Assembly (NCBI GenBank): GCA_905182855.1
Contig: CAJJDA010000009.1
Span: 62,001 to 126,000, forward strand
DNA: 64,000 bases
Source of the DNA: a gamma proteobacterium HTCC2207
GTDB taxonomy: Bacteria; Pseudomonadota; Gammaproteobacteria; Pseudomonadales; Porticoccaceae
Direction of reading: 5' to 3'
The position numbers and the translations under genes were made by a program. Numbering within the stretch: the stretch's first letter is position 1; the number at the start of each line of letters is the position of its first letter. This document shows positions 49,801-64,000 of this stretch, piece by piece. The notes under the pieces were generated by a model. The model was not told the origin of the DNA. It saw only the letters and a list, made by a program, of their open reading frames with translations, and ran no database searches.

Positions 49801-50439
49801 CTAACCCTCAATCCGAAGGCCGAATTCGCGACCAGCGTCTAACATCCACAGGGCAATATAATCGGCAAAACTGCGCCGAATAATAAGATCAAAGGAACCA
49901 TCGGTTCTGTTACTGACCAATGCGCTCGCCTTGGCAAAGGTTGTCTGAGCGCAGCGACCCTTGCCCGAGCCCGCATTAGACCAGCCAGCAAAATCATAGA
50001 TACATGACTTTTTTAACACGCTATCTATCGCCATCGGCGCCCCGCGCAGATTGACCATGGTTTGGCCGCCGCTAACATCCACAATCGAAATATGACCAGA
50101 CATAGCTTCGCGCAACCGAGCTTCTAAAACACTGGCATCTATCTCGCTAACCAACAGCCATTCATCTGGACCCAACCAGTAAATACGGCTCTGGCTACTA
50201 CAGTGATAATTGCCTCGGGTCGACAGATTCAGTTCAAGGATATCTATTACCGCTGCGCAGAAACCGGCATCATTGGGATCCCCACGCAAACTGAGAAACG
50301 CACAGGCAGGGGACTCTTTGACCACCAGAGCATATTCAACCTCGCCGTTGAAAATCTCGGCATTTGGGGCCTGACCCCTATGACTGGAAACTCTATGAAA
50401 GTAGTTTAACGGTAATTCCTGCTGGCTATTATTCGACAT
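49801..50439 (-). CDS. soxG: Sarcosine oxidase subunit gamma
   Basis: This is the gamma subunit of heterotetrameric sarcosine oxidase, about 212 residues from the ATG at 50439. That start overlaps the soxA stop by 11 nt and has AGGGGAG upstream; the longer open frame is in soxA. The fold is GcvT-like, with Y-W-L-G-P-D-E-W-L-L near residue 80 and a C-terminal S-F-A-D-Y-I-A-L-W. It is a structural subunit without cofactor and is last in the soxBDAG operon. Confidence 0.93.
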   Translation of the reverse strand: MSNNSQQELPLNYFHRVSSHRGQAPNAEIFNGEVEYALVVKESPACAFLSLRGDPNDAGFCAAVIDILELNLSTRGNYHCSSQSRIYWLGPDEWLLVSEIDASVLEARLREAMSGHISIVDVSGGQTMVNLRGAPMAIDSVLKKSCIYDFAGWSNAGSGKGRCAQTTFAKASALVSNRTDGSFDLIIRRSFADYIALWMLDAGREFGLRIEG

Positions 50440-53434
50440 GGTGACGCTCCCCTTTGGGGTCATAGAATACAGAGCTAACAATTTCAGCGGCAATGATACG
50501 GCCATCTGCCAGCGGGCAGTGGACCACTTGGCCCATTCTTCCAAGCCCACCCTTAACCACTGCGAGGGCAATAGAATGGCCCAAATATGCGCTGTAATAG
50601 CTGGAGGTCACATGGCCCTGCATTGACATGGGTATCTTTTGCTTGGCATCAAAGACCACCTGCGCGCCCTCTGGCAGCACAGCTTGGCCATCGACTGTTT
50701 TAAGCCCGACGAACTGCTTGCGGTTTTCACGCAAAGTGTCGCTGCGCTGCAAGGATCGCTTACCAATAAAACTGAAGGTTTTCTTGTTCCCTACTACCCA
50801 ATCCATATTCATGTCTGCGGGTGTCATGGACCCATCAGTATCCTGACCAACAATAATAAATCCCTTTTCAGCACGCAGGACATGCATAGTTTCGGTGCCA
50901 TAAGGAGTCATGGAAAATTCTTCACCTGCCTCAATTAGCGCCTGCCAAATGTGTCGGCCATAATGAGCGGGAACATTGACCTCATAAGACAGCTCACCGG
51001 TAAAGCTAATACGGAACACTCGCGCCTTGACGCCCGCCACGGTGCCGTCGCGCCAATCCATAAAAGAAAACGCCTCATTGGACAGGTCGATATCCTGACA
51101 GACCTTGGCAATAACCCTGCGCGCATTGGGACCCGTGACGGTCGCGGTGGCCCAGTGATCGGTCACCGACGTGAAGTACACCTGTAGTTCTGGCCATTCA
51201 GTCTGCTGCCAGATTTCCAGCCATGCCAGTACCCCCGCAGCCCCACCGGTGGTGGTAAACATTAGGTAGTGATTGTCACCCAAGCAAGCACAGACACCAT
51301 CGTCAAAAATCATGCCGTCTTCTTTTAGCATGACGCCGTAACGACATTTTCCCGGTGCCAATTTCAGGTATGAGTTGGTGTAAATACGGGTAATAAATTC
51401 TGCAGCATCTGGGCCTTGAATATCTATCTTCCCAAGCGTACTAGCATCCAACATACCAACTGAATTGCGTACCGCCAGACATTCGCGGTTAACCGCGTCA
51501 TTCATAGTTTCGCCCTGCTGTGGAAAGTACCAGGGTCGCTTCCACTGCCCCACATTTTCAAATTCGGCTCCATGCTCTACATGCCAACGATGCATAGCCG
51601 TGTAGCGTTCAGGATCAAACAGCGCTTTGACATCGCGCCCTGCAATCGCACCAAAGGTGGTCGGCGTGTAGGACGGGCGGAAGATAGTTGTACCCGTTTC
51701 TGCAATCGTCTGGTCGAGCGCATTGGCCAGAATCGCCATGCCGTTAATGTTGCCCAGTTTGCCCTGATCGGTACCAAAACCTAGTGCGGTATAACGCTTC
51801 ACATGTTCGACTGATTCAAATCCTTCACGGACAGCCAACTCAATGCCGCCGGCACTAACATCGAGCTGGAAATCAACAAACTGACTGGGTGCCCGACTAG
51901 TCGCACTCGTATGCGGCACTAAAAACAGCGCCTGCTGTGGCTGCTCGATGTAGTCTTCAACGGCACAGGCAGGGAACTGCACGCTCCCGTCTCCATGACC
52001 GCAGAGGCTAGCGGCAACGGCCCCGGCACTGGCACCCTCTGCAAGGCATCCGGTCAAATCGAAGGTTCCCCTACAGGCACCCGCAGACCGCTCCTGTTGC
52101 TTCGACTCACCGGGTCTGAAGCCAACAATACTCTCATCCCAGACCGGTTTGGCCCCCGTGTGTGAACTCAAATGGACCGCCGGGCTCCAACCCCCAGAAC
52201 AGGCAATTAGGTCACAGTTCAGACGTCGCACTGGCCCGGTAACCTGAGTGCCAGACGCATTAATAGGCGCAATCAGCGCACGTTTAACACGCTTATTACC
52301 CTGAGCTTCTATAAGCCCATGACCTCCAATCACCTCTATACCGCGGAGCTTGACCGCCGCCACAATATCGCCGCTCGGGTTGCTACGAGTATCGACTACT
52401 GCAATGATCTGGCGGCCGGTCTGCTGCCAATCTAGGGCTGTCTGATAGGCACTGTCATTGGTTGTGAATAGCAACAGCTTTTTGCCTGGAGCAACCCCGT
52501 AACGATTGATATAGGTGGATACGGATGATGCTAGCATTACGCCGGGGATATCATTGTGTGCAAATACCAGAGGTCGCTCAAAAGCACCCGTGGCCAAGAC
52601 TACCTGAACCGCACGCACCCTATGTAACCGCTGACGTGTTCCTTGGGCCGATGAAAGTCCTAAATGATCGGTGCGCCGTTCTAAAATAGTCAAAAAATTG
52701 TGATCGTAATAGCCAAACACCGTGCTCCGCGGCAGCAGCTGAACATTTTTATAGGCCACGAGTTCGGCCACCAGACTGGCAACCCACCGCGGAGCCATCA
52801 CGCCATCCATCGTTTGTTGCGATGCGAGTAAACTACCGCCAAATTCAGACTGCTCGTCAGCAATAATGACTCTGGCGCCGGTGCGCGCCGCTTCACGGGC
52901 AGCTACCAATCCCGCTGGGCCTGCCCCCACTACCAAGACATCGCAGTGTTGATTAAGCTTGTCATACGTATCTGGATCAGCCTCGACTGGAGCAGTGCCA
53001 AGCCCTGCGGCCTTGCGAATAAAATGCTCATAAGTCATCCACAGCTTTTTCGGATACATAAACGTTTTGTAGTAAAACCCCGGAGGCATAAGTCGGCCAA
53101 AGGCACCCACTATCGCCATCACATCGAAGTTGACGCTGGGCCAACCATTGACACTGGAGGCTTCCAGCCCCTGATATAGCTCTACCTGGGTGGCCTTAAG
53201 GTTGGGTACTGTAGAGGCACCCGAGCCCAACTGAATAATGGCATTGGGCTCTTCAGCCCCATGACCAAATATACCGCGCGGGCGGGAATACTTAAAGCTG
53301 CGCCCCACGACATCGACACCATTGGCCAATAGCGCAGATGCCAGCGTATCGCCAGCAATGCCCTGATAAGACTTCCCATTAAAGGTGAAATCAATGACCG
53401 CCCCAGTGTGAGACGCCAATCGGTTCTGGCTCAT
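50429..53434 (-). CDS. soxA: Sarcosine oxidase subunit alpha
   Basis: This 1001-residue subunit binds NAD+ and tetrahydrofolate, taking up the formaldehyde-level carbon from sarcosine as 5,10-methylene-THF. It has an N-terminal 2Fe-2S-ferredoxin-like fold (F-x-F-N-G-K, residues 15-100) and a dinucleotide-binding motif V-V-G-A-G-P-A-G (about 168-175). The C-terminal GcvT-like aminomethyltransferase domain (about 610-1000) includes V-T-G-P-N-A-R. It overlaps soxD by 4 nt and soxG by 11 nt. Confidence 0.96.
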   Translation of the reverse strand: MSQNRLASHTGAVIDFTFNGKSYQGIAGDTLASALLANGVDVVGRSFKYSRPRGIFGHGAEEPNAIIQLGSGASTVPNLKATQVELYQGLEASSVNGWPSVNFDVMAIVGAFGRLMPPGFYYKTFMYPKKLWMTYEHFIRKAAGLGTAPVEADPDTYDKLNQHCDVLVVGAGPAGLVAAREAARTGARVIIADEQSEFGGSLLASQQTMDGVMAPRWVASLVAELVAYKNVQLLPRSTVFGYYDHNFLTILERRTDHLGLSSAQGTRQRLHRVRAVQVVLATGAFERPLVFAHNDIPGVMLASSVSTYINRYGVAPGKKLLLFTTNDSAYQTALDWQQTGRQIIAVVDTRSNPSGDIVAAVKLRGIEVIGGHGLIEAQGNKRVKRALIAPINASGTQVTGPVRRLNCDLIACSGGWSPAVHLSSHTGAKPVWDESIVGFRPGESKQQERSAGACRGTFDLTGCLAEGASAGAVAASLCGHGDGSVQFPACAVEDYIEQPQQALFLVPHTSATSRAPSQFVDFQLDVSAGGIELAVREGFESVEHVKRYTALGFGTDQGKLGNINGMAILANALDQTIAETGTTIFRPSYTPTTFGAIAGRDVKALFDPERYTAMHRWHVEHGAEFENVGQWKRPWYFPQQGETMNDAVNRECLAVRNSVGMLDASTLGKIDIQGPDAAEFITRIYTNSYLKLAPGKCRYGVMLKEDGMIFDDGVCACLGDNHYLMFTTTGGAAGVLAWLEIWQQTEWPELQVYFTSVTDHWATATVTGPNARRVIAKVCQDIDLSNEAFSFMDWRDGTVAGVKARVFRISFTGELSYEVNVPAHYGRHIWQALIEAGEEFSMTPYGTETMHVLRAEKGFIIVGQDTDGSMTPADMNMDWVVGNKKTFSFIGKRSLQRSDTLRENRKQFVGLKTVDGQAVLPEGAQVVFDAKQKIPMSMQGHVTSSYYSAYLGHSIALAVVKGGLGRMGQVVHCPLADGRIIAAEIVSSVFYDPKGERHHVE

Positions 53435-53721
53435 GCGCTGGCTCCGACAATTGTTGGTTGAGTACCCGTTTTATAGGTTTCCAGTATTTCATAGGTCAGG
53501 GTGTTCCGGGTGGCGTTAAAATAGCGCCGACAACCCATGGCGTGATACCACATCTCATGATGGATACCGCGCGAGTTGGTGCGGAAAAACAAGTAATCGG
53601 CCCAGGCTTGGTCGTTTAGTGCTTCAGGCTCCAGCGGCCGCACAATGTGCGCTTCACCGCCGTAGCTGAACTCTTCCTCGTCGCGATTTTCCTGACAATG
53701 GGGACAATGGATTAGTAACAT
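53431..53721 (-). CDS. soxD: Sarcosine oxidase subunit delta
   Basis: This 96-residue zinc-binding small subunit has ligands visible as Cys6-P-H-Cys9, His60 and Cys64. The family motif C-P-x-C-x-E-N-R-D-E-x-E-F is intact. It overlaps soxA (ATGA) and follows soxB by 14 bp, the usual B-D-A-G order. Confidence 0.97.
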   Translation of the reverse strand: MLLIHCPHCQENRDEEEFSYGGEAHIVRPLEPEALNDQAWADYLFFRTNSRGIHHEMWYHAMGCRRYFNATRNTLTYEILETYKTGTQPTIVGASA

Positions 53722-53735
53722 ATGAGTTCTCGTCT

Positions 53736-54986
53736 CTAGTGAGCGACACCGGCAGCGCCGTGTTCATCAATCAGTGCGCCGGTATTGAAGCGATCAAGGC
53801 TAAACGCCGCAGCCAATGGGTGCGGATGGTCGTTGGCTACGGTGTCAGCAAACACATAGCCTGAGCCCGGAGTCGCTTTAAAGCCACCCGTACCCCAGCC
53901 ACAGTTAAAATACAGACCTTTGATCGATGTTTTACTGATAATCGGACAGGCGTCCGGGCAGGTATCAACAATACCGCCCCACTGACGATTCATGCGCACC
54001 CGACTAAACGAGGGAAACAATTCACAGATCGCTTGAATGGTATGTTCAACCACATGAAAGGAGCCTCTCTGACCATAGCCGTTGTAGCTATCCACACCGG
54101 CACCAATCACCAAATCGCCCTTGTCAGACTGACTGATATAACCATGCACAGCATTGGACATAACCACGGTATCTAAACAGGGCTTCACTGGCTCGGATAC
54201 CAGTGCCTGAAGCGGTCTTGACTCAACGGGCAATCTCAGCCCAGCCATAGCCGCAACCACGCCAGAATTACCTGCGGTAACACAGGCCACTTTTGCCGCG
54301 CCGATAAACCCATGATTAGTCTCTACGCCAATTACAGCGCCACCTTGACGGCGAATACCGGTGACTTCTGTCTGCTGAATGAGATCCACGCCCAGCGCAT
54401 CGGCACCACGAGCATAGCCCCAGGCAACGGCGTCATGACGTGCAGTGCCGCCGCGCGGTTGCCATGAAGCGCCCAGTATCGGATAGCGACTATCGGAAGA
54501 GATATTAATCAACGGAGCAATTTCTTTAATGCGCTGAGGGCTAACCACTTCACCATCAATGCCATTCAAGCGATTGGCGTTGACGCGGCGCTCGATATCG
54601 CGCATGTCTTGCAAGTTATGCCCCAGATTAAGCACTCCTCGCTGGCTAAACATCACGTTATAGTTAAGTTCTTGGCTCAACCCCTCCCAGAGTTTTAACG
54701 ATAAATCGTAGAGTTGAGATGCCTCGTCCCACAGATAATTGGAGCGGATAATCGTGGTATTTCGCGCCGTGTTGCCACCGCCAAGATAGCCTTTTTCAAT
54801 CACCGCAATATTGGTAATACCATGAATCTTCGCTAGGTAGTAGGCGGTCGCTAAACCATGCCCCCCCCCGCCTACGATAACCACATCATAGTGTTTTTTG
54901 GGTGTTGGACTGCGCCAAACCTTTTGCCAATTTTCATGGTAGCTCAGCGCATTCTTTAACAGGCTGAAGCCAGAATATTTTTTCAT
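53736..54986 (-). CDS. soxB: Sarcosine oxidase subunit beta
   Basis: This 416-residue FAD/FMN flavoprotein subunit oxidises sarcosine to glycine and formaldehyde-level carbon, with H2O2 as by-product. The N-terminal FAD motif reads V-I-V-G-G-G-G-H-G. The region G-T-A-R-H-D-A-V contains the His expected to bind FMN covalently. The glycines of the FAD motif are encoded by a run of nine G (C9 at 54861-54869 on the plus strand), which is in frame. It is the first gene of soxBDAG, with a promoter candidate in the divergent gap upstream. Confidence 0.96.
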
Positions 54987-55068
54987 GATGAGCTCTCAAC
55001 AAAATTGCAGGTTAGACGCTTTTATTGGAGCAAACTGTATACCCCAGCAGATAGAAGAAAACTGACAA

Positions 55069-55097
55069 TCTATAGGCTAAAAAGCGACAAAACGTCA
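55069..55097 (-). promoter_or_regulatory. Sigma-70-type promoter for soxBDAG
   Basis: On the minus strand TTGACG (55092-55097) is followed after 17 bp by TATAGA (55069-55074), about 83 nt upstream of the soxB ATG. It lies in the 210-bp divergent region shared with the GlxA-type regulator gene. An activator site further upstream would fit but is not identified. Confidence 0.5.
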
Positions 55098-55196
55098 AAA
55101 TAGCAAGAAAATGGCACATAGATACAAGAGATATGGCGATTTTGTTGTATATAAATGCCGTCTTGCCTACACTAACGGCTTCAAACACAAGAGTTT

Positions 55197-56210
55197 ATGA
55201 TGGCCAAAAGCGTGCCGACCAACGTCAGTAATCCGTTGAGTAATCAAATCGCCTCACCGAATCTGTCGGTGGGGTTTGTGTTGATGCCAAGCTTTACACT
55301 ACTGCCATTTTCGGCCTTTGTAGACGCTCTGCGTCTGGCTGCCGATGAGGGTGACCAGAGCCAGCAAATCAATTGTCAGTGGACGCTAATGGGACAGAGC
55401 CTGGCACCTATTGCGTCCAGCTCTGGCGTTGTGGTCCAACCCTGGGAAACCTATCGCGACCCGGCAGGCTTTGATTACATTGTGGTGGTCGGCGGGCTAC
55501 TTCCCGAGACCTTGCGGGGCAGTCAACATCTGATAAATTATCTACAGCGCGCCGACCGGGCTCATGTGCCTATTATTGGTTTATGTACGGGATCCTTTGC
55601 AATGATTCGTGCAGGGCTGATGAAGAACCGACGCTGCTGTGTCAGCTGGTTCCACTATAAGGATCTCACTGAGCGCTACGCCGATGTAGTGCCAGTAGCC
55701 GAACAGCTGTTTGTCGATGATGGCGACCGAATCACCTGCGCCGGTGGAGCTGTAGCAGCTGATCTAGCAGCCTATATTATTGAGCGGCATCTAGGCCAGA
55801 GCTGGGCGCGCAAGAGTTTACGCATTCTAGTCATGGATAGCCCGCGTCCCGCCAATGCACCGCAGCCCCAACCGGCCTCTGATTATCAGGTCAACAATAC
55901 GTCAGTTAAGCGTGCGCTGTTACTGCTCGAACAGAATCTTAGTCGTCCTTTATCAACCGATGCTATCGCCCTGCGCCTCAATATTTCTAAGCGCCAACTA
56001 GAGCGATTATTTATTAGTGAAACCGGCGTTAGCTTGCAAAGGTTCTATCGTAAGATCCGCTTAAATTATGGTCTTTGGTTATTACAAAATACGCCGCGAT
56101 CAATTACCGATATTGCCCAGGATACGGGGTTTTCAGACACCGCGCATTTCTCTCGTGCCTTTAGAGCAGCCTTTGATAAAAAGCCTATGGAATGCCGAGG
56201 AGCAGCCTAA
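55197..56210 (+). CDS. GlxA/AraC-family transcriptional regulator (sox-linked)
   Basis: This 337-residue regulator has an N-terminal DJ-1/PfpI-like domain (about 24-195, with Cys130 in G-L-C-T-G-S) and a C-terminal AraC double helix-turn-helix (about 235-335). Relatives include GbdR, SouR, CdhR and ArgR-type activators that sense betaine derivatives or amino acids. Divergent transcription from soxBDAG suggests it controls sarcosine oxidase, perhaps responding to sarcosine or dimethylglycine. Which ligand it binds cannot be read from the sequence. Confidence 0.88.
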   Translation: MMAKSVPTNVSNPLSNQIASPNLSVGFVLMPSFTLLPFSAFVDALRLAADEGDQSQQINCQWTLMGQSLAPIASSSGVVVQPWETYRDPAGFDYIVVVGGLLPETLRGSQHLINYLQRADRAHVPIIGLCTGSFAMIRAGLMKNRRCCVSWFHYKDLTERYADVVPVAEQLFVDDGDRITCAGGAVAADLAAYIIERHLGQSWARKSLRILVMDSPRPANAPQPQPASDYQVNNTSVKRALLLLEQNLSRPLSTDAIALRLNISKRQLERLFISETGVSLQRFYRKIRLNYGLWLLQNTPRSITDIAQDTGFSDTAHFSRAFRAAFDKKPMECRGAA

Positions 56211-56229
56211 TCCGCTTCGCTCATCTCCT

Positions 56230-57228
56230 TTAGGACAGCACGCGGCGTTCACTACTTGGCGGTTTACCATACAGGTCGCTATAGCACTTACTGAAGTGTG
56301 GCGCAGTGGAAAAACCGCAAGTAATGGCCACATCAATCACTGGAATAGAAGTCTGCAATAATAACAGTCGTGCCCGGGAAAGACGCAGTTCCAAATAATA
56401 CCTTGACGGCGCGCGACTTAAATAGCGATTAAATAACCGTTCCAGCTGACGCCTTGAAATACCCACATAGCTAGCCACCTCATCCAGGGTCAATGGTTCC
56501 TCAATATTACTTTCCATTAATAATACCGCATCCACTAAACGCGGCTGACTGGCGCCAATCAGGTACTGCAACGGTGCACGCTGTGCGTCCTTCTCTGTGC
56601 GCACTCTATCGCAGGTAAACTGCTCGGATATTTGCTGCACCAGCTGATGACCATGAATACTCGCGACTAGGTTAAGCATTAAATCAATGGAGCTAATGCC
56701 GCCAGCGCAGGTGTAGCGATCACGGTCGATCACAAACAGGCTGGAGGTTATTTTAAGCCGCGGAAACTCTTCCCTCATACTGGCTAAATTTTCCCAATGG
56801 ATGGTGCACTCATAGCCGTCTAAGAGACCGGCAGTAGCAAGCACATAACTGCCAGTGCAAAGGCCGCCTAAGGGAGTCTTTCGCTTAGCTAACCGGCGTA
56901 GGCAATCGACTACCGGTTTAGTGGAATGAGTCTTAATATGATAGCCACCACAGACTATTAGGACGCCAAGATCCTCTGCAGACCGGAGGCTATCAGACAC
57001 TCTGAATTTAAGCCCGGCACTGGATACCACCGACTCACCATCGATACTGTATAACGTCCAACGATAGAGTTCGCGTCCACTTAGCCGATTCGCCATGCGG
57101 AGTATACCCACCGCATTAGAGAACGTACTCAGGGTGTATTCGGGCATTAACAGAAAGCCTACATGCATAGCTAACGGGGGATCTACGAGCACTTCTTCAG
57201 CAGTGACAAAATCGACTGTATCGGACAT
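56230..57228 (-). CDS. GlxA/AraC-family transcriptional regulator (GbdR-like)
   Basis: This 332-residue regulator has a DJ-1/PfpI-like domain (about 22-190, Cys124 in G-L-C-T-G-S) and an AraC helix-turn-helix (about 230-328). The segment L-R-M-A-N-R-L-S-G followed by L-Y-R-W closely resembles the Pseudomonas GbdR group, which senses glycine betaine and dimethylglycine. It is convergent with the neighbouring regulator, with 19 bp between them, and lies at the 3' end of the methyltransferase operon. AAGAAGG precedes the ATG. A palindrome lies 23 bp upstream. Confidence 0.88.
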   Translation of the reverse strand: MSDTVDFVTAEEVLVDPPLAMHVGFLLMPEYTLSTFSNAVGILRMANRLSGRELYRWTLYSIDGESVVSSAGLKFRVSDSLRSAEDLGVLIVCGGYHIKTHSTKPVVDCLRRLAKRKTPLGGLCTGSYVLATAGLLDGYECTIHWENLASMREEFPRLKITSSLFVIDRDRYTCAGGISSIDLMLNLVASIHGHQLVQQISEQFTCDRVRTEKDAQRAPLQYLIGASQPRLVDAVLLMESNIEEPLTLDEVASYVGISRRQLERLFNRYLSRAPSRYYLELRLSRARLLLLQTSIPVIDVAITCGFSTAPHFSKCYSDLYGKPPSSERRVLS

Positions 57229-57250
57229 ATTTAAACGCCTTCTTTTTAGT

Positions 57251-57265
57251 CACTCAAAATGAGTG
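57251..57265. promoter_or_regulatory. Palindrome upstream of the GbdR-like gene
   Basis: CACTCA-AAA-TGAGTG is a perfect 6+3+6 inverted repeat between the ASKHA gene stop (57334) and the regulator start (57228). It could be an operator for autoregulation. A role as a transcript hairpin is also possible, although no T-run follows in the minus direction. Confidence 0.35.
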
Positions 57266-57333
57266 TATTTTGCTGAGTATAGAGTAAGAAAGGTCTTGAT
57301 AAGACATTTATTTTACCCATTTTTCAGCGGTGA

Positions 57334-59345
57334 TTAGCGCCTGCGTTGCCTCCTAACACCCACAGTATCTTTTACCTCATTGACTACTGGCATGCTTACC
57401 ACAGAGAACAGATTAGGAAAGGGATCACGCTTGTTTGGAAAGGCCATAGCATCGACAAAATAGTCCTGAAATTTAGGCTCAAGAGCAGTTTCAATTTTCT
57501 CAATATTTTTTACTAACGTCTCAATAACATGCCGTGATTGACATTGAGAAGCGCAATTCGAGCGCCTGTACCCGCAGCATTACCCGCCGAGGACACTTCT
57601 TCTAATGGACAGTCAGGAATCAGGCCCAAGACCATGGCGTGCTGTACGTTGATATGGCTACCAAATGCTCCAGCAAGACGAATGCGCTCTATCTTATCAA
57701 CGCCCATATGGTCCATTAATAGCTTCACACCTGCATACAATGCCGCCTTAGCCAGCTGAATTTGGCGGATGTCATTTTGTGTAACCACGATAGGTTCTTC
57801 GCCACCCTCTGACGTGAATAAACTATAGGACCAGGTACGATCATTACTAATAATTCGCGCGGTGCGGCTAGCCAGTCCGCCATCGACAATACCGTCAACG
57901 GTGACAATACCAGCGAGATACATCTCGGCAACAACCTCAATAATACCGGAACCGCAGATTCCAGTGATGCCAAAATCTCTGACCGCGTCAGTAAAACCCT
58001 CTTGGTCCGACCAGAGCTCACAACCAATCACTTTGAACCGCGGCTCTAATGTGTCTGCGTCAATGCGCACGCGCTCAATAGCACCGGTGGCGGCACGCTG
58101 ACCGCAGCTAATCTGAGCCCCTTCAAAGGCCGGCCCGGTTGGACTTGAACAGGACATTAACCGCTGACGATTGCCCAATACAATTTCGGCGTTGGTACCC
58201 ACGTCCACTAGCAGGGTCATTCGATCCTGAGCCTGAGGCTCCTCAGACAGAATCATACCTGCGGTATCAGCGCCAACATGCCCGGCAATACAGGGCAGCA
58301 CATAGAGCCGCCCGCCAGGATTAATCGACAACCCAACCTCAGTCGCTCGAACATTCACCGGGGCATCAGTGGTCAAAGCAAAGGGTGCGCCGCCCAATTC
58401 TATCGGATCAATACCCAATAAAATATGATGCATTATGGGGTTGGCCACCAGAGAGATTTCTACAATATCCTCAATACTGGCACCAATAATCTGAGCCACG
58501 TCGACAAACAAACTATTCAGTGCATCGCGGATAACCTGAGTCATCTGTTCGGCACCCTCTGGGTGCATCATCACGTAGGAGACACGGCTCATAAGATCTT
58601 CGCCAAAACGAATCTGTGGATTCATCAAGCTAGAGTTGGCCAGAACCTCACCACTGAATAGATCACAGAGGTGCGCCGCCACCGTGGTAGAACCCACGTC
58701 GACAGCCACACCATAGGCTTTGTCGCGGAATCCAGCCCACAGAGCAATGATCTGACTGCCTCGATGTACCGCTACTGTAATGCCGCGTTGGCCCTCCCGC
58801 AGCGCGGGCTGCAATGTTTTTAATAATCGGACCTCAAAGGATAGGCCACTTAGCTGCCATTCAGTTTCCAGTGCATCCATCAGTCGTTGCACATCACCCT
58901 TGGGTACATGCATATCCGGCTCTTCAACTTGAACATAGTAAAGCCGCGTTGCTGGATCTAATTTGATATCACGATATTCAGCATCTTTGCGCACAATCTG
59001 CCGATGCACCTGACTTTCAGGGGGGACGTCTATAACCACATCATCGAGCAGCAATGTGTGACAACTCAGTCGGCGACCATTGGCCAGGGGGACTTTGCGC
59101 TCACCGTATTTAATTTCAGTAGCGCACACTGGGGAAAGATGACTGCTTTTGGAGATAATCTCATGTTTGGGGAAGGCACCGTCAGTGCAGATGATTTGAC
59201 AGCGCCCGCAAAGTCCACGACCGCCGCAAACTGAGTCAATATCTACACCGAGCACCCGTGCTGCATGCAATAGCGGCGTATTCAGGGGAAAGCTACCTCG
59301 CCGCCCCGAAGGCGTGAACACGACCTTGACCTGCTTCTCACTCAT
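57334..59345 (-). CDS. Corrinoid activation protein, [2Fe-2S]-ASKHA (RamA/RACo-like), frameshifted near its end
   Basis: It probably reactivates the Co(II) corrinoid protein by ATP-dependent reduction. The N-terminal plant-type ferredoxin domain has Cys40-x5-Cys46-x2-Cys49 and Cys95. A linker follows, and then an ASKHA/DUF4445 ATPase domain beginning at V-D-V-G-S-T-T-V (about residue 216). The first frame ends at 57513. The other frame continues I-E-T-L-V-K-N-I-E-K-I-E-T ... and ends in an Arg-rich tail at 57334, as in homologues. One missing base near 57527-57528 explains the break (GG read as G on the minus strand), and repair gives 670 residues. It lies 17 bp after the methyltransferase gene. 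Confidence 0.9.
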
Positions 59346-59362
59346 AATTAACCCTCGGCGAC

Positions 59363-60256
59363 TTACTTTGCACGGCGACGGCTGGTGCGGCCACCACGGC
59401 CTGCCTCTGCCGTTGGATCTCGATATGCCTTAATCCAATTGGCGCAGTTGGGATCATTGCCCATCATCACGTCGCCACCGCGCACTGCTTGCATGACCTC
59501 AGGGTGCAATGGACTTGTGATCGCTGAGGTCATTCCTGCGCCCATAGCCATGGTCAAAAATGCACTGTTAATACCATTGCGGTTGGGCAGACCAAAACTC
59601 ACATTTGATGCGCCGCAGGTGGTATTCACTTTTAATTCCTCACGCAGCCGACGCACCACATGCATAACCTGTAGACCCGCAGTATTAATCGCACCGATAG
59701 GCATAACTAGCGGATCAACAATCACATTGCTATAGTGGATACCATGATCGGCCGCTCGCTCAACAATTTTTTTAGCGACTTTAAAGCGCTCGTCTGGGTC
59801 TTCAGAGATCCCTGTTTCATCATTAGATATCGCCACCACAGCCGCACCATATTTGGCGACCAGCGGCAGGACTCTTTCCAAGACTTCATCTTCACCTGTC
59901 ACTGAATTGACCAAAGCTTTGCCCTGATACACCGAAAGCCCCGCCTCTAATGCTTCAATGATAGAAGAGTCAATACTCAGAGGAACGTCAGTAATGGACT
60001 GCACCAGCCTAATGGCCTCAGCCAGGATACGCGGTTCATCGGCCAGTGGAATACCAGCATTGACATCCAACATATGAGCGCCCGCCAGGACCTGTGCTAG
60101 AGCATCAGCCTCGACGCGACTGTAATCGCCTATCTTCATTTCCTCCGCAAGGATCTTTCGACCGGTCGGATTAATCCGCTCGCCAATAACAACGAAGGGC
60201 TGATCAAAGCCAATTTTAACTTCACGAGTGGCGGAACTGAGGGTAGTGATGGTCAT
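59363..60256 (-). CDS. Methyltetrahydrofolate:corrinoid methyltransferase (MtgA/AcsE-like)
   Basis: This 297-residue pterin-binding TIM barrel is related to dihydropteroate synthase, MetH domain 2, AcsE and MtgA. Family features are E-R-I-N-P-T-G-R (residues about 26-33), L-D-V-N-A-G (about 63) and S-I-D-S-S (about 94). It would move the methyl group from the methylated corrinoid protein to tetrahydrofolate, or the reverse. The basic C-terminal tail (G-R-G-G-R-T-S-R-R-R) is like that of homologues in alphaproteobacterial clusters. The neighbouring reactivase, MetF and MttB genes support the role. Confidence 0.9.
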   Translation of the reverse strand: MTITTLSSATREVKIGFDQPFVVIGERINPTGRKILAEEMKIGDYSRVEADALAQVLAGAHMLDVNAGIPLADEPRILAEAIRLVQSITDVPLSIDSSIIEALEAGLSVYQGKALVNSVTGEDEVLERVLPLVAKYGAAVVAISNDETGISEDPDERFKVAKKIVERAADHGIHYSNVIVDPLVMPIGAINTAGLQVMHVVRRLREELKVNTTCGASNVSFGLPNRNGINSAFLTMAMGAGMTSAITSPLHPEVMQAVRGGDVMMGNDPNCANWIKAYRDPTAEAGRGGRTSRRRAK

Positions 60257-60271
60257 GCTATTCTCCAGACT

Positions 60272-61258
60272 TTAACGGTTCGGATGCCAGGGTTTTCTAT
60301 CGCCTAGCACATTAGTTTTCTCGACGATCTCTGCGACACGATGCTCTTGTTTATACGCCATAATGTGCACGCCACTGGCCCCTTCAATTTCACGAATCTG
60401 GTTGATCATATCAATACAGATATTGACGCCTTCCTGCTTCTGGTCTTGCGCACCCGACAGACGTTTAATGATGGCGTCTGGAATATGTACGCCGGCTACG
60501 TTATTGCGAATCCACTCGGCAGATTTAGCTGACGCTAGGGGGCCAACACCCGGAAGAATGAAGACCTTTTCCAGCAATCCCTGATCTCGTACCTTGCTCA
60601 TATAATCTTTTAACATTTCAATATTAAAGCAGTATTGAGTTTGTATAAACTGGGCACCAGCAGCGACTTTTTTTGCTAACCGCAGGGGCCGATAATCGAA
60701 CGGCGGCGCAAAAGGATTGGCCGCCGCACCCAAAAATATCTGTGGCGGCGACGTGATGGTGCGACCACTTAAAAATTGCCCTCTGTCACGCATACCTCTC
60801 AGCATTTCTAATGAGGTCATGCAATCCATATCGAATACAGGCTTCGCCTCGGGGTGATCCCCTGACTGCACACCGTCGCCTGTCAGACACAGAATATTCG
60901 ACACACCCATCGCTGAGGCGCCAAGCACGTCTCCCTGCATAGCGATACGATTTTTATCGCGACAGGAAATCTGCATAATCATCGAGTACCCGCAACGGGT
61001 CAAAAGAGCACACATTCCAACACTGGACATATGGCAATTGGCGCCAGAACCATCGGTAGCATTAATGGCGTCGACATAGCCATCAAAGCTAGACGCTCGC
61101 ACATAGACCTCATGGGGGTCGGCTGAATCCGGAGGAGCAATTTCTGCGGTTACAGCAAATTGACCGGAACGCAACACTCGCTCAAAACGGCCCGGTGAGA
61201 CGTGCCCGGGCAGGATCGGTAAGTTTTCACCTGAATTCGGTTCGTCTTCAAACAGCAT
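60272..61258 (-). CDS. Methylenetetrahydrofolate reductase, MetF-like
   Basis: This FAD-dependent TIM-barrel protein is related to MetF, 328 residues from ATG 61258 (M-L-F-E-D-E-P). The ATG overlaps the upstream stop by 11 nt, and the longer open frame lies in the upstream gene. Family motifs include A-E-I-A-P-P near residue 38 and Q-T-Q-Y-C-F near 215. In this context it would interconvert methyl-THF and methylene-THF, presumably oxidising methyl-THF made from demethylation. This is the catalytic half; the companion C-terminal-type domain is encoded separately just upstream. Confidence 0.88.
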   Translation of the reverse strand: MLFEDEPNSGENLPILPGHVSPGRFERVLRSGQFAVTAEIAPPDSADPHEVYVRASSFDGYVDAINATDGSGANCHMSSVGMCALLTRCGYSMIMQISCRDKNRIAMQGDVLGASAMGVSNILCLTGDGVQSGDHPEAKPVFDMDCMTSLEMLRGMRDRGQFLSGRTITSPPQIFLGAAANPFAPPFDYRPLRLAKKVAAGAQFIQTQYCFNIEMLKDYMSKVRDQGLLEKVFILPGVGPLASAKSAEWIRNNVAGVHIPDAIIKRLSGAQDQKQEGVNICIDMINQIREIEGASGVHIMAYKQEHRVAEIVEKTNVLGDRKPWHPNR

Positions 61259-61712
61259 GATTTTCAGCCACTTTTTTACGCGTTGCTCGCAGCCAAGCGG
61301 AGGTACCTTTATTGCGAACATCTAGAGGTGGCTGAATGATTTGAATAGTGGATTCCTGATTACCGAGTTTTTGACTGCCCTCCCAGGCTGTCACCCAAAC
61401 ACAGGTCATCTCAGGCTGTATTTCGCAGCCTCCATCTGCACGCACTCCGCCACAGGGTCCATTGCGCAATGTTTTAGGACAGTTCATAGGGCAGGCCATC
61501 CCCGTGTTACCCAGAGTGCATTGACCACAGGATTGGGAATCAAAAAGCAGTCCTTTTACGGCGCTCTCTAGGCGCGAAAAAGGCGTCTCTAGACGCTCGT
61601 AACCGACCCAATTAAGTACTGGGTGCAGAAATACTAAGAGCGTCTCCAGACCCTGATATAGCCAGTGCAAGCCGCGCGCATGGCGCACAGACCAGTAGCG
61701 CATAGTCTTCAC
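61248..61712 (-). CDS. Methylenetetrahydrofolate reductase C-terminal (MetV-like) Cys-rich protein
   Basis: This 154-residue protein matches the MTHFR_C domain (MetV-like). Its Cys pattern is C-G-Q-C, then C-P-M-N-C-P, N-G-P-C-G-G and a further C. These probably bind Zn or Fe-S, as in acetogen MetV, which partners MetF. A hydrophobic N-terminal segment (L-L-V-F-L-H-P-V-L near residue 26) is also present. The start is GTG overlapping the upstream TGA, with an ATG three codons in as an alternative. It overlaps metF by 11 nt, so the two products probably form a complex. Confidence 0.85.
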   Translation of the reverse strand: MKTMRYWSVRHARGLHWLYQGLETLLVFLHPVLNWVGYERLETPFSRLESAVKGLLFDSQSCGQCTLGNTGMACPMNCPKTLRNGPCGGVRADGGCEIQPEMTCVWVTAWEGSQKLGNQESTIQIIQPPLDVRNKGTSAWLRATRKKVAENHAV

Positions 61713-62017
61713 TGATCGTCGACCCTAACGCCTTTGCTGGCGATCAGCGCCGCAATATCCGCATTGGAGTAGGCTAGCTCAATAGCGCCGGCAAACTGTT
61801 GCGCTAACTCGTGTGGACAGCCGTCTCCCCCGATGGAGCTGGTCACGCGACGCCAGTCGGCTAAATAGGCGTCACTACCGCCCTTGCCTGCACGCATAGC
61901 CGCACGGTCAATTGCCGCCTGAAAGCGATGACTAAGCATGGTTTTACCCCGCTCACGTCCTCGTTTTACCAGTACCTGAGCGGGGATGTCACGCCAGTAA
62001 ACCTCTATTTTTTGCAT
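61709..62017 (-). CDS. 'Virulence factor' family small protein
   Basis: This 102-residue protein matches the PF13769-type 'virulence factor' family: K-I-E-V-Y-W-R-D-I-P-A-Q at the start, K-R-G-R-E-R-G-K near residue 18, and W-R-R near 55. The name is historical, and no virulence role is implied. It is repeatedly found with MttB-type methyltransferase and DUF1638 genes. Its function is unknown, and it may assist corrinoid loading or reactivation. GGGAGT precedes the ATG. Confidence 0.8.
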   Translation of the reverse strand: MQKIEVYWRDIPAQVLVKRGRERGKTMLSHRFQAAIDRAAMRAGKGGSDAYLADWRRVTSSIGGDGCPHELAQQFAGAIELAYSNADIAALIASKGVRVDDQ

Positions 62018-62030
62018 TTTCGTACTCCCA

Positions 62031-62657
62031 CTATGCGTTAAACTTTAAAACTTGTTCTTGCAGGCCTGTCTGAAGGTCACCGTAGCCGCAGGGGACTGTC
62101 TCGAACCCCAATGCTAAAAACTCGGCCGCCTTTTGTGCCTGCTGCACCAGCCAGCTGTCCTGCCGCTGCGACAAATAAACAACCTTTGTATAATTGGCAA
62201 ATAACTGCGCACGCAACTCGGGATGTTTATCGAGCCGCAGCCCACGGATGATTAAGCGGTCAAAATGTTCGACCAAAAAATCTGTCAGATAAAACGTACC
62301 TAAATTCTGCTCAGCCAATTCAGAGAACCGCTGTTCGCCGGCATAAAACGAATAGCAATGCGCGCCAGGTAAGCGCTCGATGCCCTGCATAGACTCTTCA
62401 GCAAGAAGAGCATCAATCTGACCACCAGTGCCGCAATCGGCATAGGCAACGAATATATGCTGATACTTTTGCCGGTTTTGCTCGATTTTCAACCGCAACT
62501 TCTCAGGAATCAGCTTGGGTCTGTTGTGTAATTCAGCGTCCAGACATTGCAAATCAAACTGCTGCCAACCATTAGCTTTTTGTAACCATACAATCTCTTT
62601 GGCCAAAGCGCCGCAGGCGATAACCAATAGTTTTTCCTGAGCCTGAGTTTGGCGCAC
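62031..62657 (-). CDS. DUF1638 domain-containing protein
   Basis: This 208-residue DUF1638 protein has conserved A-C-G-A-L-A-x-E-I near residue 15 and Y-A-D-C-G-T-G-G near 72. The Cys residues in both are candidates for metal or corrinoid handling. The start is GTG overlapping the corrinoid protein stop by one base (TAGTG), so the two are cotranslated. The biochemical function is unknown, but family members sit in methylamine/betaine corrinoid methyltransferase loci. Confidence 0.85.
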   Translation of the reverse strand: MRQTQAQEKLLVIACGALAKEIVWLQKANGWQQFDLQCLDAELHNRPKLIPEKLRLKIEQNRQKYQHIFVAYADCGTGGQIDALLAEESMQGIERLPGAHCYSFYAGEQRFSELAEQNLGTFYLTDFLVEHFDRLIIRGLRLDKHPELRAQLFANYTKVVYLSQRQDSWLVQQAQKAAEFLALGFETVPCGYGDLQTGLQEQVLKFNA

Positions 62658-63356
62658 TAGGCTGGCTCTAATACTCGACGTTCAGCAACCAAACGAATAG
62701 CGGTCGTGGCCGCATCTGCCGCATCACGGCAGTAGGCATCTGCACCAACCGCTAAGCCAAATTCTTCATTGAGAGGAGCCCCGCCAACCATGACAATATA
62801 GTTGTCGCGCAAACCCTGATCTTTCAATGCATCCACAACGACTTTCATATAGGGCATAGTGGTGGTTAACAGAGCCGACATTCCCAGAATGTCCGGTTTA
62901 TGACGCTCAAGGGCAGCGAAGTAATCTTCGACTGAATTATTAATACCGATATCATGCACCTCAAACCCGGCACCTTCCATCATCATGGATACCAAAGTTT
63001 TTACCAATATCGTGAATATCACCTTTGACGGTGCCAATCACCATAGTGCCGACTGGCCTAGCGCCAGTTTCTGCCAGCAGTGGCTTGAGAATCGCCATGC
63101 CACCCTTCATTGAATTGGCCGACAGCAGGACTTCCGGGACAAACAAAATACCATCACGGAAATCGATGCCGACAATGGTCATGCCGTCGACTAACGCCTT
63201 ACCCAGAACCTGCTCAGGGCTCCAGCCTCGGTTCAACAGAATTTGTGTGCCCTCCTCTATCTCTTCTTTTAGCCCGTCATACAAATCGTCATGCATCTGT
63301 AATACCAGATCCTCATCGGACAGGTCCGCCAAGATAATATCGTCTTCTTCAGACAT
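62657..63356 (-). CDS. Corrinoid protein of the methyltransferase system (MtgC/MttC-like), frameshifted
   Basis: This cobalamin-binding protein would shuttle the methyl group between the MttB-like enzyme and the methyl-THF transferase. It has an N-terminal helical cap domain (about 20-100) and the Co-ligand motif D113-I-H115-D-I-G118, followed by a Rossmann-like B12 domain. The frame breaks right after G-K-N. Removal of one T from a TTT (A at 62994-62996 on the plus strand) restores K-N-L-V-S-M-M-M-E and gives 232 residues, the normal size. The remaining B12-binding elements, including M-S-A-L-L-T-T-T-M and V-G-G-A-P-L, are intact in the second frame. Confidence 0.92.
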
Positions 63357-63385
63357 ATAGTGCCCCTGTTAATATAGCGGTAAAG

Positions 63386-64000
63386 TTAATAATCGCGATC
63401 GGCAAACGACGCTTTACGCCGCGCCATAAAATCTTGTAATGCTTCATCGATCCCAGGGTCTATAGCTGGCGCCTGATAATCATTGAGCATTTTTTTCCAA
63501 AGGGTATTGGCGCGCTGAGCCGTATCCAAAGCACCATCCGCGGTCCACTGTTCAAAACTATTGTTGTCGGCCACCGTGGAGCGGTAAAAAGCCGTTTCAA
63601 AGTTGGCCAACGTATGTGCGGAACCCAGGTAGTGTTTGCCTGGGCCTACTTCTCGCACCGCCTCCATCGCCTGACCGTTTTCAGACATGTCCATGCCACC
63701 GAGCAGAACCCCAATCATGCTGGCCTGATCGCAATCCATAATAAATTTTTCGTAACCCATGGCCAGGCCTCCCTCGAGCCAACCGGCTGTGTGCAGCATA
63801 AAGTTGACGCCTGCCAGTGCCGAAGTTTGCAAGGTATTGGCCGCCTCATAGGCTGCTTGCGCGTCGGGCAGTTTGGAGCCACAAAGACCACCACCACTGC
63901 GAAAGGGAACACCCAGCCGACGTGCCAGTGCGGCAGCGGCATAGACCACCATGCTAGGCTCGGGCGTACCAAAGGTCGGCGCCCCTGTAGCCATTGAGAC
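63386..64000 (-). CDS. MttB-family (trimethylamine/glycine betaine) methyltransferase, C-terminal part
   Basis: This is the C-terminal roughly 204 codons of an MttB-superfamily methyltransferase; the rest lies beyond the right edge. It shows the family segment G-G-L-C-G-S-K-L-P-D-A-Q-A-A-Y-E and a C-terminal helical region. No in-frame TAG occurs in this part. In archaeal trimethylamine MttB the pyrrolysine is about 160 residues from the C-terminus, so this protein belongs to the non-pyrrolysine group. Characterised members of that group (MtgB) demethylate glycine betaine; others use proline betaine or carnitine. The corrinoid gene follows 29 bp downstream. Confidence 0.9.
   Translation of the reverse strand, partial: VSMATGAPTFGTPEPSMVVYAAAALARRLGVPFRSGGGLCGSKLPDAQAAYEAANTLQTSALAGVNFMLHTAGWLEGGLAMGYEKFIMDCDQASMIGVLLGGMDMSENGQAMEAVREVGPGKHYLGSAHTLANFETAFYRSTVADNNSFEQWTADGALDTAQRANTLWKKMLNDYQAPAIDPGIDEALQDFMARRKASFADRDY

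What the first reader, a model, noticed from the sequence alone, without database searches (positions are those of the whole stretch)
49801..64000. Corrinoid-dependent amine demethylation operon joined to sarcosine oxidase in an aerobic gammaproteobacterium
A non-pyrrolysine MttB homologue, its corrinoid protein, a methyl-THF:corrinoid methyltransferase, MetF/MetV-like reductase parts and a [2Fe-2S]-ASKHA reactivase adjoin soxBDAG and two GlxA/AraC regulators. The proteins are seen in the sequence. MtgB-type glycine betaine demethylation is known from anaerobes. The coupling to O2-using, H2O2-forming sarcosine oxidase is an inferred pathway: betaine to dimethylglycine with the methyl going to THF, then (by an enzyme not in the window) to sarcosine and glycine. 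How a low-potential Co(I) system works in an aerobe is an open question.
Basis: partly seen in the sequence, partly recalled or inferred. Interest (0 to 1): 0.85.

Follow-up and report, generated by a model that had tools for sequence, protein, structure and literature searches.

The report
Aerobic B12-dependent glycine betaine demethylation operon
A marine SAR92-clade bacterium carries, side by side, genes that appear to strip all three methyl groups from glycine betaine, the first with vitamin B12; the route is already published for other aerobic marine bacteria, but two of its helper proteins remain unexplained.

Summary
The window lies in a 76%-complete SAR92-clade (Porticoccaceae) MAG. 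Its minus strand carries mtgB (cut by the window end), mtgC, DUF1638, PF13769, metV, metF, mtgD and a RACo-type reactivase, then two GlxA/AraC regulators (one close to GbdR) and soxBDAG. In 19 of 19 close relatives holding all checked genes the order is the same.

The central claim is not new. Mausz et al. (PNAS 2025) showed cobalamin-dependent MtgBCD betaine demethylation in an aerobe and reported it in marine Gammaproteobacteria; Price et al. (2018) tied RamA-like and DUF1638 proteins to B12 reactivation in an aerobe. This is a new member of that kind. Differences: a MetV-MetF pair where some relatives have a single-chain reductase; MetH elsewhere in the genus; no CbiC found, but B12 uptake genes.

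The freshest lead is the small "virulence factor" PF13769: in 249 sampled Pseudomonadota genomes it occurs in exactly the 23 with a full-length MttB, and 21 of 22 loci lie beside a methylene-H4F reductase. mtgC and the reactivase are frame-broken in this assembly.

The parts
63386..64000 (-). 3' part of mtgB/mttB (glycine betaine:corrinoid methyltransferase type, non-pyrrolysine); full gene 513 aa, reaching beyond the window
   Evidence: PF06253 756 bits; 66% identical to 4yyc, 44% to MtgB 2qne
62961..63356 (-). mtgC, first piece: B12-binding cap domain; frame changes before the end of the gene
   Evidence: PF02607, NF047996 MtgC profile 2-108
62657..63037 (-). mtgC, second piece: B12-binding domain, in another frame
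   Evidence: PF02310, NF047996 106-209; one frame in 84 of 84 relative loci
62031..62657 (-). DUF1638 protein, presumed partner in cobalamin reactivation
   Evidence: PF07796; four cysteines invariant in 36 of 36 aligned proteins; model pLDDT 91
61709..62017 (-). PF13769 small protein (named 'virulence factor' in Pfam)
   Evidence: PF13769; phyletic match to MttB and adjacency to MTHFR
61248..61712 (-). MetV-type cysteine-rich subunit (DUF5981)
   Evidence: PF12225; seven cysteines kept in at least 95% of 40 aligned sequences
60272..61321 (-). MetF-type methylene-H4F reductase
   Evidence: PF02219
59363..60256 (-). mtgD/mtgA: methyl-H4F:corrinoid methyltransferase (pterin-binding)
   Evidence: PF00809; NF005719 over cut-off
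57513..59345 (-). RACo/RamA-type reductive activator of corrinoid protein; C-terminal end in another frame
   Evidence: RACo domains; lengths and frame
56230..57228 (-). GATase1-AraC regulator, GbdR-like
   Evidence: NF052371 GbdR 425.5 bits, cut-off 480
55197..56210 (+). second GATase1-AraC regulator
   Evidence: DJ-1_PfpI + HTH_18; GbdR model 180.7 bits
53736..54986 (-). soxB, sarcosine oxidase beta
   Evidence: TIGR01373 over cut-off
53431..53721 (-). soxD, sarcosine oxidase delta
   Evidence: PF04267
50429..53434 (-). soxA, sarcosine oxidase alpha
   Evidence: TIGR01372 over cut-off
49801..50571 (-). soxG, sarcosine oxidase gamma
   Evidence: PF04268

Best explanation
This is a catabolic glycine betaine cluster of an aerobic SAR92-clade bacterium, of the MtgBCD kind. 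Inferred steps: MtgB moves a methyl group from glycine betaine to the cobalamin of MtgC; MtgD passes it to H4F; the operon's own MetV-MetF oxidises methyl-H4F to methylene-H4F, its electron acceptor unknown. Dimethylglycine is demethylated by the DAO/GCV_T flavoprotein beside mtgB, and sarcosine by SoxBDAG with O2, both passing C1 units to H4F; the divergent formate-H4F ligase can harvest them as formate and ATP. RACo and DUF1638 rescue oxidised Co(II). A GbdR-like regulator probably senses betaine or dimethylglycine. B12 is probably imported. Shown here: gene content, conserved order, homologies, co-occurrence. Inferred: substrate, direction, coupling.
For: Domain content. Same order of 12 genes (13 markers, mtgC counted as two) in 19 of 19 close relatives that hold them all; the other 12 of the 31 close relatives are loci of 3.3-19.7 kb. 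GbdR-like regulator. The cluster's MTHFR is extra: 16 of 16 genus genomes have a strong MetF, 12 of 12 mtg-positive genomes also have a reductase at the operon, 4 of 4 mtg-negative have one MTHFR only. The reductase type at this position varies (38 MetVF, 12 and 4 single-chain among the 62 of 80 loci with both PF13769 and mtgD), so the step matters more than the enzyme. No glycine betaine monooxygenase: best GbcA score 129 against a cut-off of 670 in 4 of 5 Rieske candidates tested. BCCT transporters in 16 of 16. B12 riboswitch in 16 of 16, in this genome upstream of a BtuB-like/CobA/BtuF-like cluster; CbiC in 0 of 16. Published precedent in R. pomeroyi (PMC12478193).
Against: No expression or growth data for this organism. 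mtgC and the reactivase are frame-broken in this assembly, so in this very genome the system could be decaying; I think an assembly error likelier because mtgC is intact in 84 of 84 relative loci and both halves stay 83-92% identical to close relatives. Some MttB paralogues of unknown substrate branch nearer than D. hafniense MtgB. A BHMT/MtgE-type gene is also in this genome (NF005718, 435 bits against 338). Eight of the 62 assessable loci have no reductase between PF13769 and mtgD. The GbdR cut-off is not reached.
Confidence: 0.82

Rival explanations
1. The MttB here takes another quaternary amine (for example a carnitine-, choline- or proline-type betaine) and the neighbouring genes then handle the product.
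For: Unknown-substrate paralogues branch inside the group; only D. hafniense MtgB and pyrrolysine MttB could be used as characterised references.
Against: The gene sits beside dimethylglycine- and sarcosine-demethylating genes and a GbdR-like regulator; it is 44% identical to MtgB over 474 residues.
Confidence: 0.1
2. As in R. pomeroyi, MtgC and MtgD here also serve as a split methionine synthase with MtgE, and betaine demethylation is secondary.
For: An MtgE/BHMT-type gene is in this genome, and no MetH was found in the incomplete MAG.
Against: 15 of 16 genus genomes have MetH over the cut-off (13 as one full-length hit, 2 in pieces), including 4 of 4 without the mtg cluster; MtgE-type hits in only 4 of 16. 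The cluster holds catabolic genes and a second MTHFR.
Confidence: 0.05
3. The cluster is a decaying remnant in this organism: two frame breaks within about 6 kb.
For: Frame changes in mtgC and in the reactivase.
Against: The other operon genes compared with a relative align in one piece; the mtgC break is seen in none of 84 relative loci, and both halves remain 83-92% identical to close relatives, as expected for sequencing or assembly errors. For the reactivase, 2 of 51 relatives are short too and were not examined.
Confidence: 0.08

Closest known systems
MtgBCD(E) glycine betaine methyltransferase of aerobic marine bacteria (Mausz et al. 2025, R. pomeroyi DSS-3)
   Same: MtgB, MtgC, MtgD, RamA-like activator, DUF1638, dedicated methylene-H4F reductase; aerobic; dimethylglycine/sarcosine genes often nearby in Gammaproteobacteria
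   Different: All in one cluster here; MetV-MetF pair instead of a lone MetF2; MetH kept in the genus, so mtgCD is probably not needed for methionine in most members; no CbiC found; MetV, GbdR and the word virulence are absent from that paper's main text
MtgABC of Desulfitobacterium hafniense
   Same: MtgB type (44% identity), corrinoid protein, methyl-H4F methyltransferase
   Different: Aerobe; beside sarcosine oxidase; carries PF13769 (the D. hafniense locus itself was not compared here)
Split methionine synthase of Phaeobacter inhibens (Price et al. 2018)
   Same: B12 cap/binding protein and pterin-binding protein; DUF4445 (RamA-like) and DUF1638 reactivation pair
   Different: Purpose there is methionine synthesis; no MttB or sarcosine oxidase in the passages I read
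MetVF-type methylene-H4F reductase of acetogens
   Same: MetF (PF02219) with a cysteine-rich MetV subunit (PF12225)
   Different: In an aerobe, expected to run in the oxidative direction; no Rnf or Hdr gene in the cluster
GbdR regulator and SoxBDAG of pseudomonads
   Same: GATase1-AraC regulator and heterotetrameric sarcosine oxidase for betaine catabolism
   Different: Pseudomonads start with the monooxygenase GbcAB, not found here in the candidates tested

Membership tests
Aerobic MtgBCD glycine betaine methyltransferase | MttB-family protein without pyrrolysine | tested here: met
   756 bits to PF06253, no internal stop; the Pyl position of 7xcl aligns with Leu (my reading)
Aerobic MtgBCD glycine betaine methyltransferase | Separate corrinoid (MtgC) and pterin-binding (MtgD) proteins | tested here: met
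   mtgC frame-broken in this assembly, in one frame in 84 of 84 relative loci
Aerobic MtgBCD glycine betaine methyltransferase | RamA-like activator and DUF1638 in the genome | tested here: met
   activator frame-broken near its end
Aerobic MtgBCD glycine betaine methyltransferase | Glycine betaine as substrate | not testable with these tools
   Only context: neighbours and GbdR-like regulator
Aerobic MtgBCD glycine betaine methyltransferase | Dual use in methionine synthesis (MtgE present, MetH absent) | tested here: inconclusive
   MtgE-type gene present and MetH not found in this 76%-complete MAG; MetH in 15 of 16 genus genomes
MetVF-type methylene-H4F reductase | MetF plus cysteine-rich MetV encoded together | tested here: met
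   PF02219 and PF12225; 7 conserved Cys
MetVF-type methylene-H4F reductase | Fe-S clusters and flavin, electron partner | not testable with these tools
   needs protein
Heterotetrameric sarcosine oxidase | soxB, soxD, soxA, soxG in order | tested here: met
GbdR | Curated model NF052371 at its cut-off (480 bits) | tested here: not met
   425.5 and 180.7 bits: GbdR-like, not filed as GbdR
Dimethylglycine dehydrogenase | DAO + FAO_M + GCV_T + GCV_T_C fusion | tested here: met
   substrate not tested
Glycine betaine monooxygenase route (GbcAB) | GbcA over the NF058607 cut-off | tested here: not met
   best 129 of 670 among 4 of 5 candidates; genome incomplete

The most novel reading that the evidence does not exclude
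The small PF13769 protein, named a 'virulence factor', is a dedicated and unrecognised component of B12-dependent quaternary amine demethylation in aerobic Pseudomonadota, working with whichever methylene-H4F reductase (MetV-MetF or single-chain) oxidises the methyl-H4F. DUF1638 beside it is a four-cysteine metal or Fe-S protein that helps RACo keep cobalamin reduced in the presence of oxygen.
Probability: 0.45. Interest if true: 0.6.

Novelty: new member of a known kind. Interest (0 to 1): 0.42.

Why it matters
Glycine betaine is an abundant marine osmolyte and SAR92 bacteria are common in blooms. The cluster probably ties betaine use in this clade to imported vitamin B12, and shows that mtgBCD can coexist with MetH as a catabolic set. 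The tight link of PF13769 to MttB and to methyl-H4F oxidation names a specific unknown protein that can be deleted and assayed in existing model strains, and bears on how an aerobe runs low-potential corrinoid chemistry.

Tried and rejected
Novelty of the main pathway: rejected after reading PMC12478193. Structure-based function of DUF1638 and PF13769: confident models (pLDDT 91 and 92) but no solved-structure match at E of 0.001 or better and only sequence hits of E 0.08 or worse in the PDB. MetV against the PDB gave only matches to designed TPR repeats, ignored. A shared element upstream of soxB and the dimethylglycine gene was seen but not tested. Number of reductase exchanges: not resolved, as branch supports inside SAR92 are low. 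Literature: no paper holds PF13769 or DUF5981. Word searches for PF13769's neighbourhood gave 95 and 51 papers, 10 listed each, off the point by title except the known corrinoid papers, none newly read. MetV with corrinoid and aerobic gave 8 papers, on acetogens, archaea or anaerobes by title, not read. The library is open-access only and figures were not visible, so Fig. 4 of PMC12478193 may show some of the same genes. My first tally of reductase types (39, 13, 6, 7, 15) counted hits anywhere in a locus; one search recounts by position and is the one used.

Full report
What is there. The window is part of contig C9 of a 1.64 Mb, 76%-complete genome in 14 contigs. Its nearest named relatives are SAR92-clade genomes (Porticoccaceae, HTCC2207, MOLA455, H921). 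Reading down the minus strand from just outside the window: a dimethylglycine-dehydrogenase-type protein (837 aa; DAO, FAO_M, GCV_T, GCV_T_C), mtgB (513 aa), mtgC, DUF1638, PF13769, metV, metF, mtgD, a RACo-type activator, a GATase1-AraC regulator; then a second such regulator on the plus strand, and soxB, soxD, soxA, soxG on the minus strand. A formate-H4F ligase is divergent upstream.

Is it real and conserved. Among 80 named loci fetched with the window MttB (355 confirmed matches, the best 80 kept), 31 have an MttB at least 87% identical. Of these 31, 19 hold all 12 genes checked (13 markers, mtgC counted as two; reductase, soxA and soxG left aside) and all 19 have the same order. The other 12 lack one or more; they are loci of 3.3 to 19.7 kb, and I did not examine them one by one. 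The 49 more distant loci keep parts of it: mtgC's two halves in 39 each, DUF1638 in 34, PF13769 in 37, mtgD in 39, RACo in 30.

Frame breaks. mtgC is two overlapping ORFs here, but lies in one frame in 84 of 84 relative loci where both halves were found (these include duplicate records of the same contigs). The activator is 610 aa here; 49 of 51 relatives have 668 aa or more, and against three relatives its end is found in another frame. The two short relatives, L088 and L089, were not examined. Intact copies exist in relatives. An assembly or sequencing error is the likelier reason, but I could not see reads.

Substrate. MttB is 66% identical over 506 residues to PDB 4yyc ('putative trimethylamine methyltransferase'; source organism recalled as Sinorhizobium meliloti), 44% over 474 to D. 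hafniense MtgB 2qne, and only distantly related to the pyrrolysine enzyme. In a small FastTree the window protein groups with other gammaproteobacterial MtgB and 4yyc; D. hafniense MtgB lies outside, with paralogues of unknown substrate in between. Substrate therefore rests on context: dimethylglycine and sarcosine genes on either side and a regulator scoring 425.5 bits with the GbdR model (cut-off 480; the second scores 180.7).

Other routes and supplies. In 16 genus genomes (12 with, 4 without the cluster): MetH over the cut-off in 15 of 16 (13 as one full-length hit, 2 in pieces), not found in this incomplete MAG; MtgE/BHMT-type hits in 4 of 16, this genome included, that gene being over the NF005718 cut-off. 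A strong MetF is in 16 of 16; an additional reductase at the operon in 12 of 12 cluster-bearing genomes; three of those have a third. Cobalamin riboswitch in 16 of 16, in this genome upstream of a BtuB-like receptor, CobA and a BtuF-like protein (receptor and BtuF below their cut-offs). CbiC, my only test for corrin synthesis, in 0 of 16. BCCT transporters in 16 of 16. Four of five Rieske matches of this genome were tested; none is GbcA (best 129 bits, cut-off 670).

A swapped reductase. Between PF13769 and mtgD lies either metV-metF or a single-chain reductase-like gene of about 280-329 aa. Of 80 loci, 62 have hits to both flanking genes; in that gap 38 have MetVF, 12 a single-chain gene like that of SAR92 MED-G170, 4 a second single-chain kind, and 8 none. 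Both main types occur inside SAR92, and Halieaceae mostly have MetVF, but branch supports inside SAR92 are low, so I do not count the exchanges. The single-chain proteins score weakly with MTHFR models, one above the Pfam cut-off (28 bits against 24). The step, oxidation of methyl-H4F, is kept while the enzyme changes. This fits the reading of Mausz et al. that MetF2 oxidises methyl-H4F.

PF13769. In 249 Pseudomonadota genomes drawn by the tool, this genome included, PF13769 occurs in 23 and MttB in 24: the same 23, each with a full-length match, plus one genome with only a 73-residue MttB match (hypergeometric p about 1e-31; the genomes are related, 16 genera in 6 families, 12 in one family and 7 in one genus, so this overstates independence). 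DUF1638 is in all 23 and in 16 more; MetV in 12 of the 23, one of these below its cut-off. Of the 22 PF13769 loci outside the window's genome, 21 have a reductase within about 1.5 kb (12 single-chain, 9 MetVF) and 1 lies among mtgD, DUF1638, mtgC and the activator. PF13769 also rings in one control genome, Bacillus subtilis, where MttB does not, so elsewhere it has another role. In this phylum it follows MttB, whichever reductase is used. The protein has no conserved cysteine, keeps a WRDIP motif (invariant in 37 of 37), and its model matches no solved fold. My reading, a partner or regulator of the reductase, is inference.

DUF1638. Cys15, Cys38, Cys75 and Cys101 are invariant in 36 of 36 aligned proteins and present in two distant members whose alignment I read (L157, L164). 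In the model each lies at or soon after the C-terminal end of a strand (strands 10-14, 34-38, 67-71, 93-95), as a metal or cluster site on one edge of the sheet would. I had no coordinates to measure distances, so this is a lead.

What is known. Mausz et al. 2025 (PMC12478193; Results and Discussion read, figures and supplements not seen) report proteomics and mutants in R. pomeroyi DSS-3 showing MtgC and MtgD essential for betaine growth and for methionine synthesis, with RamA-like and DUF1638 proteins more abundant, and find mtgC homologues and mtgBCD in marine Alpha-, Gamma- and Deltaproteobacteria, often beside the later demethylation genes. Its main text does not mention MetV, SAR92, GbdR or the word virulence. 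Price et al. 2018 (PMC5764234; passages read) give mutant fitness evidence that DUF4445 (RamA-like) and DUF1638 proteins are needed for B12-dependent methionine synthesis in P. inhibens grown aerobically. An Antarctic metatranscriptome (PMC6383258; passages read) credits SAR92 among others with potential to use compatible solutes; its betaine detail is in a supplement I did not see.

Verdict. What remains new to me is the MetV-MetF variant in an aerobe, MetH coexistence and likely B12 scavenging in SAR92, and above all the PF13769 link. No paper in the library holds PF13769 or DUF5981.

Noticed in passing
window 61709-62017: PF13769 'Virulence_fact' occurs in the same 23 of 249 sampled Pseudomonadota genomes as full-length MttB, and beside a methylene-H4F reductase in 21 of 22 other loci.
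   Followed up: yes
window 62031-62657: DUF1638 has four invariant cysteines near strand ends in its predicted model, suggesting a metal or Fe-S site.
   Followed up: partly
L050:8732-10219, L084:3157-4635, L111:15745-17235: A second, about 25%-identical MttB type occurs in some SAR92 genomes and beside two dimethylglycine-dehydrogenase-like hits in Luminiphilus and Woeseiaceae loci; substrate unknown.
   Followed up: partly
window 54987-55196 and L003:5645-5901: A GTCG-containing element (TTGTCG, as a spaced repeat, upstream of soxB) is conserved upstream of soxB and of the dimethylglycine gene in 15 aligned loci each; a candidate regulator site.
   Followed up: no
L080: A contig labelled Flavobacteriaceae TMED48 (FRAM18_bin288) carries this SAR92-type cluster, its MttB 90% identical; it looks misbinned.
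   Followed up: no
L111, L119, L124, L126: Woeseiaceae-type loci with mtgB, mtgC, PF13769 and mtgD but no DUF1638 or RACo hit in the fetched stretch; how their cobalamin is reactivated is open.
   Followed up: no
L087, L092: Halieaceae loci with only short metF-like remnants between PF13769 and mtgD.
   Followed up: no
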